Shown: in pieces, positions 51,488-57,773 of the stretch | Layout of the letters: the number at the start of each line of letters is the position of its first letter | Position numbering within the stretch: the first letter of the stretch is position 1 | Assembly (NCBI RefSeq): GCF_003172875.1 | Contig: NZ_QGKM01000030.1 | Location: forward strand, 1 to 64,000 | Direction of reading: 5' to 3' | Length of the DNA: 64,000 nt | From: Leucothrix pacifica | Lineage (GTDB): Bacteria > Pseudomonadota > Gammaproteobacteria > Thiotrichales > Thiotrichaceae | The notes under the pieces: generated by a model | The model's input: the letters and a program-made list of their open reading frames with translations, nothing else | Databases searched by the model: none | Told to the model about the DNA's origin: nothing | Position numbers and translations under genes: made by a program

Positions 51488-51694
51488 AAGCTCCCACCTG
51501 ACAGTTATCGTTAATTTAGTATAGAAGACAAATCATGCTATCCGCTAATTAACAATAAGAAAAATAAGTTACTGACCTTATTTCTTGTATACGGAATCCC
51601 AAATATTTGGTGATACAATCCACAGTGCATTCAGATGCGAAGGGGCGAGCTGAGGTCGCCGTTTTATCAGTCTATTTTATGGAAATATTGCTTA

Positions 51695-53614
51695 ATGACT
51701 GAATTGCCAGAGACAACGGATTGGTCCGTTGAGCAAAGTGCAGAGCTGTATGGTGTAAGGCACTGGGGAGCAGGGTATTTTGACTTATCAGCAGAGGGCG
51801 ATGCGACGGTCACTGTTGATATAGAGGGGAGGTCAATAGCGGTTCCTATCATCGATATCGTGCAGGGAATGCAGGAACGAGGCCTGGAGATGCCTTGTGT
51901 GCTGCGTGTTGAAAACTTGCTGGATTATCGTATCCAACAGCTAAATGAAGCATTCTCCCGTGCCATCAGGCAGTCAGAGTATCAGAATCATTATCGTGGT
52001 GTATTTCCGATTAAAGTGAATCAGCAATGTCACGTTATTGAGGAAATTGCGGACTTCGGGCAGAACTATCATCATGGGCTGGAAGCGGGTAGTAAGGCCG
52101 AGCTAATTATTGCTTTGTCGCAACTACGGGATACCGAAAGCCTGATTATCTGTAATGGTTACAAAGACGCTGAATTTATAGAGTTGGGTTTGTATGCCAG
52201 ACAGATGGGCGTGCGCTGTTTCTTTGTACTGGAAACGCCTACAGAGTTACCCATCATTATCGAACGCAGTCAGGCGCTGGGCATTGAACCGTTGATTGGT
52301 GTGCGCTTGCGCTTATCCACCACGGTTGACGGGCATTGGCAGGAAGACAGTGGTGATCGCTCTATCTTTGGCTTATCGACGTCTGCTTTGCTAGATGTCG
52401 TGGAGAAGCTGAAAGCCCATAATATGTTGCATTGTCTGCAAATGCTGCACAGTCATCTAGGCTCGCAAATTCCTAATATCCGAAACGTGCGTACCGGTGT
52501 GGCAGAGGCTTGTCGCTTCTATAGCGGCCTTGTGTCAGAAGGTGCGCCAATGGGCTACCTCGATTTAGGTGGCGGACTGGCCGTGGACTATGAGGGCAGT
52601 AGCAGTAACAGCACGCATAGTATGAATTATCAGCTGGATGAGTATTGCGTAAATATCGTGGAAACGGTGCGTGATACCTTGGATGAGATGGATATAGCGC
52701 ATCCTGTTTTGGTGTCAGAATCAGGCCGTGCCACGGTGGCTTACTCGTCGATGTTGTTGTTTAATATTTTGGATGTACGCGATCACAAGCCCAGAAAATT
52801 GCCTGAGCAACTGCCGGATGATTGCCCCGATGTACTGAAGAATCTGTTTTCAGTATTGGGCACGGTGACCAGTCAGAACTTTCAGGAGTGTTACAACGAC
52901 GCGCTGTACTACCGCGATGAAGTTCGGGAGATGTTCCATCGCGGGCATGCGACCCTGCGTGACCGAGCCTTAGCGGAGAATATCAATCTTGCTATCTTAG
53001 GGCAGATTGCGGCTTTATTACCGAGCATTAGTCGAGTGCCATCAGAGCTTGAGAATCTGCCAGAACTGCTCTCCGATATTTATTACGGCAACTTCAGTTT
53101 GTTCCAATCACTGCCGGATGTGTGGGCGATTGATCAGTTATTACCGATTATGCCGGTGCATCGTTTGGATGAAAAACCAACGCGTGATGCCATTATTGCC
53201 GACATCACTTGCGATTGTGACGGTAAAATAGACAACTTCGCACTACCAGATGGTCATAGCAAAACCATCCCATTGCACCCGATGAAAGATGATGAAGAAT
53301 ATTACCTCGGCGTGTTCTTGGTCGGGGCTTATCAGGAAACATTGGGTGATTTACACAACTTATTTGGTGATACCAATGTGGTGAGTGTGAAAATTAATGC
53401 AGACGCCAGTTTTGACTTTCAGCGTGAGTTTGAAGGTGACAGTATTTCGGATGTATTGAGCTATGTGGAATACAGTCCGAATACGGTGCAGGAGCAATTA
53501 CGTAAGAAAGCGGAAGCAGCAGTAAGGCAGGGCAAAATTTCAGTTGCCATGCGTAAGCAGATGTTAAAAGCATTTAGAGACAGTTTACAGGGTTATACCT
53601 ATTTTGAGCGCTAG
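51695..53614 (+). CDS. speA: Biosynthetic arginine decarboxylase
   Basis: The protein (639 residues from ATG 51695, chosen to match family length) is a fold-III PLP decarboxylase. It has the PLP-lysine region YRGVFPIKVNQQ, GLEAGSKAELIIAL, HLGSQIPNIRNVRTGVAEA, and LDLGGGLAVDYEGS, typical of SpeA. It decarboxylates arginine to agmatine in polyamine synthesis. The carboxynorspermidine genes are about 1.8 kb downstream. A defence-like two-gene cassette lies between them. Confidence 0.95.
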   Translation: MTELPETTDWSVEQSAELYGVRHWGAGYFDLSAEGDATVTVDIEGRSIAVPIIDIVQGMQERGLEMPCVLRVENLLDYRIQQLNEAFSRAIRQSEYQNHYRGVFPIKVNQQCHVIEEIADFGQNYHHGLEAGSKAELIIALSQLRDTESLIICNGYKDAEFIELGLYARQMGVRCFFVLETPTELPIIIERSQALGIEPLIGVRLRLSTTVDGHWQEDSGDRSIFGLSTSALLDVVEKLKAHNMLHCLQMLHSHLGSQIPNIRNVRTGVAEACRFYSGLVSEGAPMGYLDLGGGLAVDYEGSSSNSTHSMNYQLDEYCVNIVETVRDTLDEMDIAHPVLVSESGRATVAYSSMLLFNILDVRDHKPRKLPEQLPDDCPDVLKNLFSVLGTVTSQNFQECYNDALYYRDEVREMFHRGHATLRDRALAENINLAILGQIAALLPSISRVPSELENLPELLSDIYYGNFSLFQSLPDVWAIDQLLPIMPVHRLDEKPTRDAIIADITCDCDGKIDNFALPDGHSKTIPLHPMKDDEEYYLGVFLVGAYQETLGDLHNLFGDTNVVSVKINADASFDFQREFEGDSISDVLSYVEYSPNTVQEQLRKKAEAAVRQGKISVAMRKQMLKAFRDSLQGYTYFER

Positions 53615-53689: not shown

Positions 53690-54625
53690 ATGCCTTTAGT
53701 CCAATCAGTTCACTTTTCAAATTACCGTAATTTCACTGACTTTACGATGGATGGTCTTCAGCGGATTAATCTGATTGTGGGTGACAGTAATGTAGGTAAA
53801 ACTGGGTTGTTGGAAGGTTTAGTAACACTCTGGGGGAACGAAGAACAATTTAAGGCTTTGCCAAATACTTTCAGAATGAGCTACGGTGATTATACTACAT
53901 CACTAGACAGTTTTTGGAGTTGGCTTCACCCCCAGAGAAATCATAGTCTAACTATGATATTGAGGTCCACTGACATTGATAATCTAATGAGGGCCGTTAG
54001 ATATGAAGATCATGTAAGGTATGACCGTGATTCAGTAGAACGTAGTTTGCAAAAAACACCCTACAAAATCAATATTCTACCTATAGGAATTGGGAATTAT
54101 GAGTTTCAGGTTGATCTATTTAACCAATTAGCTAATACAAAAAATGGTAAGGAAAGCCTTGTAAGTTCGCTCCAGGTTATTGAACCTCGTTTGAAAGGTT
54201 TAGATTATCTGAAGCTACCATCCTCAAACCATGCAATGGTTTATGCTGATGTTGATTTAGATTATAAAATTCCTACTACTCAATTTGGCCATGGTTTCAC
54301 TCGATCAATGGAAATGCTTTCAAACCTGATTCTTTCTGGTTCCGACATTATGATTGCTGATGAAATCGAAAATGGTATTCACTACTCAGCCCTTGGTTCT
54401 GTTTGGAAAGCTATCATCGATTATGCAGTAAAAAATGATGTTCAGGTTTTCGCGACAACACACAGTCGGGAGTGTATTGCTGCCGCTCATGAGGCAATGT
54501 CAGAGCAGGAAAACTACGAACTCAATGTCATCCGGTTGCAGAACCGGAAAGGTGAGGTGGTAGCGATCAATCATAATAAAGAAGATATTGAAACTGCTTT
54601 CGATCTTGGTTTGCCATTACGATAA
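53690..54625 (+). CDS. AAA_15/AAA_21-type ATPase of an OLD/PARIS-like two-gene cassette
   Basis: The 311-residue ATPase starts MPLVQSVHFSNYRNFTDF and has Walker A GDSNVGKT (residues 31-38), Walker B IMIADEIENGIHYSAL and a H-loop FATTHSRECIAAAHE. This is the SMC-like ATPase module of OLD, PARIS and related systems. ATG 53690 is preferred over an upstream GTG at 53681. It overlaps the next gene by one base (TAATG), so translation is coupled. Its AT-rich composition differs from the flanking speA, in keeping with horizontal gain. The partner is a TOPRIM-like DUF3226 protein. Confidence 0.85.
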   Translation: MPLVQSVHFSNYRNFTDFTMDGLQRINLIVGDSNVGKTGLLEGLVTLWGNEEQFKALPNTFRMSYGDYTTSLDSFWSWLHPQRNHSLTMILRSTDIDNLMRAVRYEDHVRYDRDSVERSLQKTPYKINILPIGIGNYEFQVDLFNQLANTKNGKESLVSSLQVIEPRLKGLDYLKLPSSNHAMVYADVDLDYKIPTTQFGHGFTRSMEMLSNLILSGSDIMIADEIENGIHYSALGSVWKAIIDYAVKNDVQVFATTHSRECIAAAHEAMSEQENYELNVIRLQNRKGEVVAINHNKEDIETAFDLGLPLR

Positions 54626-55275
54626 TGAGTTCTGAAATGCCTAAACTACTGGAAATAAGCAAGCCTTTTATCGTGTTGGTAGAAGGCAAAGACGATGCAG
54701 AGATGCTTTACTCTTTGACTCATTCGATGGGTATGCCAAAAGACGAATTTCAGGTACTCCAATACGGAGGGAAGCAGAAATTCCCGTCTTTTTTAAAACA
54801 GATAACTAATTTTCCTGAGTTTGAAATGGTAACGAAGTTAGCTATATTCAGAGATGCTGATGAAAATAGCCAGTCTGCATTTCAGAGCATCGAGCATCAT
54901 CTCAAGAGTAGTGATTTAATACCTCAGGACTCTGTTCCTACTCACTCTGGTGAAGTGAAAAAGTCAGATTCAGGCTTTGCCGTTGGTATCTATATAACAC
55001 CTGACTGTTCGAATAAAGGGGCATTAGAGACTCTTTTGTTGGACTCACTAACAAGTGAAATGAAGTCTGAAATTGAAACCTATGTTACACAAGCAGAAAA
55101 GTCTTTAAGTACGGACAGAGCGCGCGATAAGTACAAGAATTCAACTAAAAGTAGGACATATGCTTACTCAGCATTGTTTGAAAATGCTAGTTTTCACGAT
55201 ACGTTTAATAAACGTCTTTGGGATTGGAGTCATCCGACGTTTAATCAATTAAAGACATTCCTCCAAGCATTCTAA
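54625..55275 (+). CDS. DUF3226 TOPRIM-like protein, partner of the upstream ATPase
   Basis: The 216-residue protein has the TOPRIM-like pattern LVEGKDDAEML (Glu20), QVLQYGGKQKF, and IFRDADENS (Asp77 and Asp79), followed by GIYITPDCSNKGALETLLLDSL. That is the DUF3226 arrangement. TOPRIM domains in OLD-type nucleases use the same acidic residues for metal binding and strand cleavage, so a phage-triggered nuclease is plausible. PARIS uses a similar ATPase/TOPRIM pair with a different TOPRIM family (DUF4435), so this is related but not identical. Confidence 0.83.
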   Translation: MSSEMPKLLEISKPFIVLVEGKDDAEMLYSLTHSMGMPKDEFQVLQYGGKQKFPSFLKQITNFPEFEMVTKLAIFRDADENSQSAFQSIEHHLKSSDLIPQDSVPTHSGEVKKSDSGFAVGIYITPDCSNKGALETLLLDSLTSEMKSEIETYVTQAEKSLSTDRARDKYKNSTKSRTYAYSALFENASFHDTFNKRLWDWSHPTFNQLKTFLQAF

Positions 55276-55371
55276 ATCAAGTGAACTAATCAACGAGGTT
55301 TGCCAGCTTCACTACATTTCAAAAACAGTTAAGAGGCGTCAATACCCAAGACGTCATGTGGGAGTATAGCT

Positions 55372-56607
55372 ATGTCTAAAGTTATGATTATTGGTGCCGG
55401 CGGTGTCGGTGGTGTGGTAACGCATAAATGCGCGCAGTTACCGGAAATTTTTAGTGAAATCGTTTTGGCCAGTCGCACGGAGTCAAAGTGTCAGGCGATT
55501 GCTGATCAAATTGATCGGCCGATTAGCACGGCACAAGTTGATGCGGATAATGTGCCAGAGTTGACTGCCTTGTTAGAAAAAGAGCGTCCATCTCTGGTGA
55601 TTAATGTCGCGCTTCCTTATCAAGACCTGACCATTATGGATGCGTGCTTAGCAGCGGGTATCGATTATATGGATACGGCAAATTATGAGCCTTTGGACAC
55701 TGCTAAGTTTGAATACAGCTGGCAGTGGGCGTATCACGATCGCTTTAAAGAAGCAGGTTTGACGGCATTATTAGGTAGTGGTTTTGATCCCGGTGCGACT
55801 AATGTTTTTACGGCCTACATCGCTAAGCATTACTTCGATGAGATTCATGAGTTGGATATTATTGATGTCAATGGTGGTGATCATGGCTACCCGTTTGCCA
55901 CCAACTTCAACCCTGAAATCAATATTCGCGAAGTTACCGCGGAATGTCGTCATTGGGAAAACGGTGAGTTTGTAGAAACACCGGCGATGTCGAAAAAGGC
56001 TAGTTTTGCCTGCCCCGAAGGTGTCGGCACTTACAATATTTACCGCATGTACCACGAGGAGCTGGAGTCGCTGACTAAGCATTTCCCTACTATTAAGCGT
56101 GCGCAGTTCTGGATGAGTTTTGGTGATAGCTACCTCAAGCATCTGGAAGTATTGGGTAATGTCGGCATGTTGGGCATCGAGCCGATTACTTACAATGGGC
56201 AAGAGATTGTGCCGATTCAGTTGCTGGCGCAGATGCTGCCAGATCCTTCCAGTTTAGGCCCAAGAACTAAAGGCCGTACCTGTATCGGTTGTGTGGTGCG
56301 TGGTCTGAAGGATGGTAAGGAGCGCATTATTTATTTATACAACACCTGTGATCATCAGGCCTGTTATGAAGAGGTGCAGTCGCAGGCGATTTCGTACACC
56401 ACCGGTGTGCCCGCTATGATCGGTGCGAAAATGATCTTGGAAGGTAAGTGGAAAGCAGCAGGCGTTAACAATATCGAGCAGTTCGACCCTGATCCGTTTA
56501 TGGAAGACATGAACAAATACGGTTTGCCATGGAAAGTGATTGAGCTGGATGCGTTTGACTTGGATGACCCAAGCAAAACGCAAGTGGCTGAAGGCAAGGC
56601 AGTTTAA
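55372..56607 (+). CDS. Carboxynorspermidine/carboxyspermidine dehydrogenase (saccharopine-dehydrogenase family)
   Basis: The 411-residue protein starts MSKVMIIGAGGVGGVVTHKCAQL (Rossmann) and has SGFDPGATNVFTAYIAKHYFDEIHELDIIDVNGGDHGYPFATNFNPEINIRE, read in parts. It ends in the catalytic region YNTCDHQACYEEVQSQAISYTTGVPAM. This matches the enzyme that condenses aspartate semialdehyde with a diamine and reduces the product. It is followed two bases later by the decarboxylase. Norspermidine or spermidine is the product class. Confidence 0.93.
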   Translation: MSKVMIIGAGGVGGVVTHKCAQLPEIFSEIVLASRTESKCQAIADQIDRPISTAQVDADNVPELTALLEKERPSLVINVALPYQDLTIMDACLAAGIDYMDTANYEPLDTAKFEYSWQWAYHDRFKEAGLTALLGSGFDPGATNVFTAYIAKHYFDEIHELDIIDVNGGDHGYPFATNFNPEINIREVTAECRHWENGEFVETPAMSKKASFACPEGVGTYNIYRMYHEELESLTKHFPTIKRAQFWMSFGDSYLKHLEVLGNVGMLGIEPITYNGQEIVPIQLLAQMLPDPSSLGPRTKGRTCIGCVVRGLKDGKERIIYLYNTCDHQACYEEVQSQAISYTTGVPAMIGAKMILEGKWKAAGVNNIEQFDPDPFMEDMNKYGLPWKVIELDAFDLDDPSKTQVAEGKAV

Positions 56608-56609
56608 TA

Positions 56610-57773
56610 GTGCAGTTTACTGACTTTGGCAAGTTGGATTTATCCCGCTTGCCTTCGCCGTGCTTTGTGGTGGATGAGGTTGCCGTGGAGCGTAATCTCA
56701 CCATCCTAAAAAGTGTTGCCGATGCCTCTGGCGCTAAAATACTGGCTGCCCTAAAAGCCTTTTCCATGTGGCATTTAGCACCACTGACTGCTCGTTATTT
56801 GAGTGGTACTTGTGCCAGTGGTTTGCATGAAGCGCGTTTGGGTCATGAGGAATATGGCGGGGAAGTGCATGTGTTCTCTGCGGCTTTTTCGGAAGCGGAT
56901 CTAAGCGAATTACTGACGTTTGCTGATCACATTGTGTTTAATTCACAATCCCAATGGCAGCGATTTCAGCCGCACATTCAAAAGGCATTGGAGTCACGAC
57001 CTATTGATTTTGGTTTACGAATCAATCCCGAGCACTCCGAAGGCACAACACCCATTTATGATCCTTGCGCACCGGGTTCTCGCTTAGGGATTCCACTGTC
57101 GCAGTTGGATGAGTCGATGCTTGATGGAATTAGTGGCTTGCATTTTCATACGCTTTGCGAACAGAACTTCGCCCCATTATCACGTACCTTAGACGCAGTT
57201 GAGGAAAAATTCGGACATTTACTGCCACAAATGAAATGGGTGAATTTTGGTGGTGGGCATCACATCACTGCACCGGATTATGATCGCGATGGCTTGATTG
57301 CTCGTATCAAAGCGTTCTCAGCAAAATACGATGTGCAGGTCTATCTGGAGCCGGGTGAAGCGGTGGCGATTGGTACGGGTGTATTGGTTAGCGAAGTGTT
57401 GGATATTAGCTGGAATCAGGTGAATCAGGCGATATTGGATACTTCAGCAACTTGCCATATGCCGGATACTTTAGAGATGCCGTATCGGCCTGATATTACA
57501 GGGGCGGGTGAGGCTGATGAATACCCGCACACCTACCGTTTGGGTGGCTTGACCTGCTTATCTGGCGATATTATTTCTGATTATAGTTTTAGCGAGCCTT
57601 TGCAGGTTGGGCAGCGTTTGATGTTTGAAGACATGAGCCATTACACCATGGTGAAAACATCTACCTTTAATGGCACGCATTTGCCAGCTTTGGCTGTCTG
57701 GAATTCTGAGACGGATGCGTTGGAGATTGTGAAGCAGTTTGGTTATGAGGATTTTAAAGGGCGGTTGTCCTGA
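56610..57773 (+). CDS. nspC: Carboxynorspermidine decarboxylase
   Basis: The 387-residue protein starts at GTG 56610, directly after the dehydrogenase stop. It carries the PLP-lysine segment AKILAALKAFSMWHLAPL, ASGLHEARLGHEEYGGEVH and the fold-III substrate region LEPGEAVAIGTGVLVSEVLDI. This is the alanine-racemase-fold decarboxylase of the carboxynorspermidine pathway. It gives norspermidine (or spermidine) as the last step. Expression is coupled to the upstream gene. Confidence 0.94.
   Translation: MQFTDFGKLDLSRLPSPCFVVDEVAVERNLTILKSVADASGAKILAALKAFSMWHLAPLTARYLSGTCASGLHEARLGHEEYGGEVHVFSAAFSEADLSELLTFADHIVFNSQSQWQRFQPHIQKALESRPIDFGLRINPEHSEGTTPIYDPCAPGSRLGIPLSQLDESMLDGISGLHFHTLCEQNFAPLSRTLDAVEEKFGHLLPQMKWVNFGGGHHITAPDYDRDGLIARIKAFSAKYDVQVYLEPGEAVAIGTGVLVSEVLDISWNQVNQAILDTSATCHMPDTLEMPYRPDITGAGEADEYPHTYRLGGLTCLSGDIISDYSFSEPLQVGQRLMFEDMSHYTMVKTSTFNGTHLPALAVWNSETDALEIVKQFGYEDFKGRLS

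What the first reader, a model, noticed from the sequence alone, without database searches (positions are those of the whole stretch)
53690..55275. ATPase plus DUF3226 TOPRIM cassette inserted between polyamine genes
The pair shows Walker A, ADEIENG Walker B and THS in the first protein and Glu20, Asp77/Asp79 TOPRIM residues in the second, with a one-base TAATG overlap. The layout mirrors OLD and PARIS systems, but the TOPRIM partner is DUF3226 and not DUF4435. It splits speA from the carboxynorspermidine genes, which belong to the same pathway. This suggests it was inserted as a cassette.
Basis: partly seen in the sequence, partly recalled or inferred. Interest (0 to 1): 0.7.

Follow-up and report, generated by a model that had tools for sequence, protein, structure and literature searches.

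The report
Two-gene phage-defence cassette with swappable parts
A two-gene cassette (an ATPase and a small nuclease-like protein) sits between polyamine genes; it belongs to a widespread, already catalogued but untested type of candidate phage-defence system, and in related bacteria its sensing and cutting parts have been exchanged separately while the neighbouring genes stayed the same.

Summary
A 311-aa OLD/RecF-like ABC ATPase (53690-54625) and a 216-aa DUF3226 TOPRIM protein (54625-55275) overlap by one base between speA and the carboxynorspermidine genes.

The pairing is not new. DUF3226 has a homologous ATPase next to it at 43 of 45 loci found by domain search, and PADLOC already lists the pair as candidate PDC-M38, with AbiLi the best single model for the ATPase. 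It is not PARIS.

The insertion reading is supported. A congener (G003) has speA and CANSDH about 48 bp apart, and the sister species (G006) has an orthologous pair. The pair is 38.7% GC against 47% in its neighbours. Synonymous sites are as diverged as in the flanking genes, so this is an old resident.

The most informative result lies outside the window. In a sister genus, 12 of 16 genomes carry the pair at one slot before rep. Between genomes with 99-100% identical Rep, the ATPase arm, the TOPRIM, or both are replaced by alleles of 21-47% identity. One further genome keeps only a deletion scar.

Best reading: an AbiL/PDC-M38-type, PARIS-like immune module, with the ATPase as sensor and the TOPRIM as nuclease effector.

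The parts
51635..53614 (+). speA, biosynthetic arginine decarboxylase (left flank)
   Evidence: NCBIfam PRK05354 E 3e-244, TIGR01273
53628..53689 (+). leader shared with the G006 copy (about 80% DNA identity), absent from the empty G003 gap; -10-like TATACT, no significant promoter consensus
   Evidence: alignment; promoter scan not above chance
53690..54625 (+). OLD/RecF-like ABC ATPase (AbiLi / PDC-M38A family), 311 aa
   Evidence: Walker A 31-38, signature-like FGHG 199-202, Walker B ADE 223-225, H258, C-terminal Arg311
53933..54235 (+). variable arm of the ATPase, residues about 82-182, inserted between P-loop and signature; the putative sensor
   Evidence: 46% aa identity and dN 0.55 against G006, versus 94% and 0.05 for residues 183-311
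54625..55275 (+). DUF3226 TOPRIM protein (PDC-M38B family), 216 aa; E20, D77, D79, E135, K175
55276..55371 (+). 96-bp intergenic stretch with the conserved leader of carboxynorspermidine synthase; no terminator found
55372..56607 (+). carboxynorspermidine synthase (CANSDH), right flank
   Evidence: NF043000 E 2e-125, below its cut-off
56610..57773 (+). nspC, carboxynorspermidine decarboxylase
   Evidence: TIGR01047 E 1e-145

Best explanation
The pair is a solitary two-gene immune module of the AbiL/PDC-M38 kind (a split OLD system). It was inserted between speA and the carboxynorspermidine genes on the branch leading to G000 and G006 and has been inherited since. Proposed mechanism (inferred): the ABC ATPase assembles on its conserved P-loop and Walker B core and holds the TOPRIM protein inactive. 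A phage product recognised by the fast-changing arm triggers release or activation of the TOPRIM protein, a two-metal nuclease (E20/D77/D79) that cuts an essential nucleic acid (tRNA as in AriB, or DNA as in OLD/GajA) and aborts the infection. Shown: the composition, near-obligate pairing, conserved catalytic residues, insertion against an empty congener site, and rapid divergence or replacement of arm and TOPRIM with a conserved ATPase core. Inferred: sensing, activation, nuclease activity, target, abortive infection. The polyamine genes are most likely bystanders.
For: Defence-catalogue matches: AbiLi 9e-48, PDC-M38A 5e-40, PDC-M38B 1e-16; family-wide, PDC-M38A in 55/55 and PDC-M38B in up to 49/55. 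Solved relatives by profile: ATPase to PtuA, OLD, GajA, AriA, retron Eco8 OLD; TOPRIM to PH0156 E 1e-5 and weakly AriB E 0.02, aligned over the catalytic-Glu motif LLVEG. Empty site G003, occupied G006, tree (G003,(G000,G006)) with 85% support. Core conserved, arm and TOPRIM fast. Sister-genus slot: mean identity Rep 92, P-loop end 95, arm 26, core 70, TOPRIM 53 over 66 genome pairs. Allele replacement in nearly identical backgrounds: L165/L170 both parts, L164/L166 TOPRIM only, L167/L168 arm only. Deletion scar in G421. A related second pair in the same genome lies in a type I R-M locus, and another DUF3226 pair is followed by a type III-like Res endonuclease. Toxicity of one AbiLii in E. coli (PMC3985639).
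Against: No activity was tested. PDC-M38 is a catalogue candidate; [quoted passage not shown] Neighbours of 80 homologous loci are mostly housekeeping genes, with few defence genes (no control set). TOPRIM-ATPase proteins can serve the cell instead: Cran1 in an archaeon (PMC12796447). The AbiLi antitoxin role failed in the one published test.
Confidence: 0.68

Rival explanations
1. A cellular regulator or repair factor (Cran1-like OLD protein, or a stress toxin-antitoxin pair) rather than an anti-phage system.
For: Solitary placement beside housekeeping genes; a cellular OLD precedent (PMC12796447); long residence at one site in two genera.
Against: Patchy presence (9/369 in the class), an empty congener site, a deletion scar and repeated allele replacement of arm and TOPRIM in otherwise near-identical genomes are typical of immune or conflict loci, not of cell-cycle genes.
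Confidence: 0.17
2. A selfish addiction cassette kept by toxicity of the TOPRIM protein rather than by protection.
For: Compact two-gene form with overlapping start; F. nucleatum AbiLii is toxic in E. coli (PMC3985639).
Against: AbiLi did not neutralise AbiLii in that test; the slot has been emptied in G421 and lacks the pair in G025; sensor-like arm diversification is not expected of a plain addiction pair.
Confidence: 0.08
3. The pair is functionally tied to polyamine synthesis and co-regulated with speA and nspC.
For: Same strand, short gaps, no terminator found, retained at the same place in G000 and G006.
Against: G003 keeps speA-CANSDH-nspC without the pair; homologues elsewhere sit beside rep, purL, lepA, hydrogenase or asnB genes.
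Confidence: 0.04
4. A member of PARIS (AriA/AriB).
For: ATPase hits AriA models at 1e-15, TOPRIM profile aligns weakly with AriB around the catalytic Glu.
Against: AbiLi and PDC-M38A score far higher (1e-48, 1e-40); the TOPRIM falls in DUF3226, with no AriB hit for the window protein.
Confidence: 0.03

Closest known systems
PADLOC candidate PDC-M38 (PDC-M38A ATPase + PDC-M38B)
   Same: Both proteins match, in the same order and size; nearly all homologous pairs match.
   Different: Only a catalogue candidate as far as found: no paper naming it and none mentioning DUF3226 was found in the library.
AbiL (AbiLi/AbiLii), lactococcal abortive infection
   Same: Two-gene ATPase + small partner; ATPase matches AbiLi best of all models (9e-48). 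AbiL is listed among ATPase-TOPRIM systems in PMC12409363.
   Different: The TOPRIM partner matches AbiLii only weakly (1e-4; 9 of 55 relatives). The prototype sequences could not be compared directly.
PARIS (AriA + AriB; OLD class 4)
   Same: ATPase and TOPRIM on separate adjacent genes; weak sequence relation of both subunits.
   Different: DUF3226 rather than the AriB TOPRIM; much shorter ATPase (311 versus 464 aa in the solved AriA).
Gabija GajA/GajB and class 1 OLD
   Same: Same ATPase superfamily and TOPRIM chemistry. In the sister genus the pair precedes a UvrD/Rep helicase gene, superficially like GajA-GajB.
   Different: ATPase and TOPRIM are split; the helicase there is resident Rep, present as well in genomes without the pair.

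Membership tests
DUF3226 (PF11536) | Pfam score above the curated cut-off (27 bits) | tested here: met
   111.7 bits over residues 16-215
PDC-M38 (PADLOC candidate) | PDC-M38A ATPase adjacent to PDC-M38B protein | tested here: met
   E 5e-40 and 1e-16, overlapping genes; PADLOC's own system rules were not run
PDC-M38 (PADLOC candidate) | anti-phage activity | not testable with these tools
   no experiment
AbiL | AbiLi-type ATPase | tested here: met
   PADLOC AbiLi E 9e-48
AbiL | AbiLii partner | tested here: inconclusive
   E 1e-4, partial, 125-aa model; 9 of 55 relatives match, best 1.5e-13
PARIS | AriA ATPase best match | tested here: not met
   AriA 1e-15 versus AbiLi 9e-48
PARIS | AriB effector | tested here: not met
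   no AriB hit for the window protein up to E 1; 7 of 55 relatives weakly, best 9e-6
Gabija / OLD class 1-2 | ATPase and TOPRIM in one polypeptide | tested here: not met
   two ORFs
two-metal TOPRIM nuclease | conserved Glu and DxD | tested here: met
   E20 and D77 in 55/55, position 79 D/E in 54/55
two-metal TOPRIM nuclease | nuclease activity and substrate | not testable with these tools
   no biochemistry; structure prediction switched off

The most novel reading that the evidence does not exclude
ATPase/DUF3226 pairs behave as fixed-slot immune loci whose sensor block (P-loop end, arm, signature/Walker B core) and effector block (ATPase C-terminal tail plus TOPRIM) are exchanged independently by recombination, much as HsdS domains are shuffled in type I R-M. 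The ATPase tail, which ends in a near-invariant C-terminal acidic-hydrophobic-Arg, would dock the TOPRIM and travel with it.
Probability: 0.4. Interest if true: 0.68.

Novelty: new member of a known kind. Interest (0 to 1): 0.5.

Why it matters
DUF3226 is annotated 'unknown function', and PDC-M38 appears to be an untested candidate. The near-obligate pairing and the natural allele replacements in genomes with 99-100% identical Rep make a clean experiment possible: which part decides the phage trigger (arm) and which part decides the target (TOPRIM). That would test whether split OLD systems are built from separable, swappable sensors and effectors. It also shows that such systems can sit alone, next to housekeeping genes, where defence-island searches would tend to miss them.

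Tried and rejected
1) Recent gene conversion as the reason for the conserved ATPase core in G000/G006: rejected; four-fold sites differ at 24/47 in the core, 80/145 in CANSDH and 129/215 in speA.
2) Own promoter or terminator: scans not above chance.
3) C-terminal E-V-R as a hidden ribosome-binding site of the TOPRIM gene: rejected for the Arg, which uses all six codons; the Glu codon is partly biased to GAG.
4) Gabija-like functional link with the Rep helicase in the sister genus: rejected as primary; Rep is present also where the pair is missing.
5) Carriage by plasmids or phages: DUF3226 had no match in plasmid or phage records. The ATPase alone matched distant ATPases at under 60% identity. 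Of 30 viral-contig relatives of the ATPase, 20 have an adjacent DUF3226-like ORF, about half of them convincing.
6) Defence-island enrichment: batch scan of 128 neighbours gave few defence families and there is no control.
No fold search was possible.
8) DUF3226 profile scan of viral contigs: not conserved enough for patterns.
9) Literature: 'DUF3226' and 'PDC-M38' return no paper in the library.

Full report
WHAT IS THERE. The two ORFs, their motifs and the one-base overlap are as described. The ATPase (P0001) is an OLD/RecF-type ABC ATPase. Profile search of solved structures places it with PtuA, class 1 OLD, GajA, AriA and the retron Eco8 OLD nuclease. P0002 is DUF3226. Its family profile finds Pyrococcus PH0156 (2p62) at E 1e-5 and, weakly, AriB (8ux9, E 0.02) over the LLVEG catalytic-Glu motif. 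Flanks are speA on the left and carboxynorspermidine synthase and nspC on the right. There is no second system, integrase or transposase in the gap.

IS DUF3226 AN ODD PARTNER? No. Starting from DUF3226 by domain search in the class, family and phylum samples, 43 of 45 distinct loci have the homologous ATPase within 1.5 kb; of the two exceptions, one is a truncated contig-edge hit and one a weak match with stops. Starting from the ATPase in 84,980 genomes, 58 of the best 80 loci have a DUF3226-like ORF directly downstream, most often with -4 or -1 overlaps. They cover Verrucomicrobia, Chloroflexi, cyanobacteria, Bacteroidetes, Campylobacterota and archaea. All 54 partners that were aligned hit the independent Pfam DUF3226 model. 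PADLOC calls the two proteins PDC-M38A and PDC-M38B, with AbiLi the best single model for the ATPase. So the pair is a member of a known, catalogued kind. The literature describes TOPRIM-linked OLD ATPases as a broad class (PMC12839542; PMC10568477) and says most PDCs await validation (PMC12988326).

CONSERVED PARTS. Over 55 pairs (window plus 54), K37, G200, D224, E225, Q252 and H258 of the ATPase and E20, D77 and K175 of the TOPRIM are invariant; position 79 is D or E in 54. The ATPase ends in Arg as its very last residue in 49 of 55, usually as E-V/I/M-R. All six Arg codons are used, so the constraint is on the protein. The window protein ends in P-L-R.

INSERTION OR RESIDENT? Both. In the same genus G003 has speA and CANSDH adjacent (about 48 bp), while G006 has the pair at the same place. 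In a tree of four proteins G000 and G006 are sisters and G003 is outside (85% bootstrap), so one insertion on their common branch is the simplest account; loss in G003 is not excluded, and no scar is evident there. The pair is 38.7% GC against about 47% in the flanks, and the G006 copy is equally low. Yet four-fold sites are as diverged as in the flanks: ATPase core 24/47, CANSDH 80/145, speA 129/215. It is therefore an old acquisition kept by selection. Amino-acid change is very uneven: dN is 0.05 for ATPase residues 183-311, 0.55 for residues 81-182 (the arm between P-loop and signature) and 0.42 for the TOPRIM. The two copies are each other's nearest relatives by far (74% identity; the next best in public genomes is about 35%).

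THE SISTER GENUS SHOWS THE PROCESS. In genus g2 of the same family 12 of 16 genomes carry a pair of this kind at one slot, between a divergent thioredoxin/amidase pair and the resident rep helicase gene. Mean identities over the 66 genome pairs are Rep 92%, the ATPase P-loop end 95%, arm 26%, core 70%, TOPRIM 53%. Three comparisons with Rep at least 99% identical isolate events. L165/L170: arm 23%, TOPRIM 47%; DNA identity runs unbroken into the ATPase P-loop, collapses, and resumes at the rep ATG. L164/L166: arm 99%, TOPRIM 45%. L167/L168: arm 21%, TOPRIM 88%. Mantel correlations separate two blocks. P-loop end, arm and Walker B core vary together (rho 0.59-0.66, p 0.001). The ATPase tail varies with the TOPRIM (rho 0.50-0.54, p 0.006) but not with the arm (rho 0.03). 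Physical linkage alone could give the tail-TOPRIM correlation. The slot also turns over: G421 keeps only the ATPase leader and the last few codons of the TOPRIM gene (a deletion scar), G025 shows no remnant, and G422 holds an unrelated reverse-strand ORF. G006 has a second pair of this subfamily at another place, so the cassette is not bound to one site.

MECHANISM. The best model is PARIS-like: an ATPase sensor, with the fast-changing arm as trigger-binding part and a conserved nucleotide engine, controls a TOPRIM nuclease effector. Established for PARIS: AriA holds AriB, phage proteins trigger release, and AriB cuts tRNA (PMC12409363). For AbiL: one AbiLii homologue is toxic in E. coli, without neutralisation by its AbiLi (PMC3985639). 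For this pair the sensing, activation, nuclease step and target are inference. DNA and RNA targets are about equally likely on present evidence. Polyamine synthesis is most likely incidental: G003 has the pathway without the pair and relatives sit beside unrelated housekeeping genes.

LIMITS. No structure could be predicted. Only three genomes of the window's genus carry the CANSDH locus. The neighbourhood survey has no control set, and its few defence neighbours are only suggestive. Prototype AbiL sequences were not compared directly.

Noticed in passing
L052 6458-8040 (same genome, G000:C85 about 86.5-88.0 kb): A second ATPase plus small 186-aa protein pair lies between a SNF2 helicase and divergent hsdM/hsdS genes, i.e. 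inside a type I R-M-like locus.
   Followed up: partly
   Followed up: yes
L190 (G421), just upstream of rep: Deletion scar: ATPase leader joined to the last few codons of the TOPRIM gene.
   Followed up: yes
L192 (G422), between thioredoxin and rep: The same slot holds an unrelated reverse-strand ORF, so it may be a general insertion spot.
   Followed up: no
ATPase C-terminus, window 54614-54622, and 54 homologues: The last residue is Arg in 49 of 55 ATPases, usually acidic-hydrophobic-Arg, with all Arg codons used; possible docking tail.
   Followed up: partly
L172, L173 (sister genus): Another ATPase/DUF3226 subfamily sits next to purL and a PIN-domain toxin-like gene in two genomes; in L173 an extra 525-aa ORF splits the pair.
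   Followed up: no
L205 and L212 (G596:C199): Two DUF3226 pairs in tandem, 1.7 kb apart.
   Followed up: no
L003 333-1495 (G006): nspC of G006 reads as two overlapping ORFs (frameshift or sequencing error).
   Followed up: no
L046 426-6687 (G251:C126): A DUF3226 pair followed by another AAA_21 ATPase, a 189-aa partner and a type III-like Res endonuclease: a small defence cluster.
   Followed up: no
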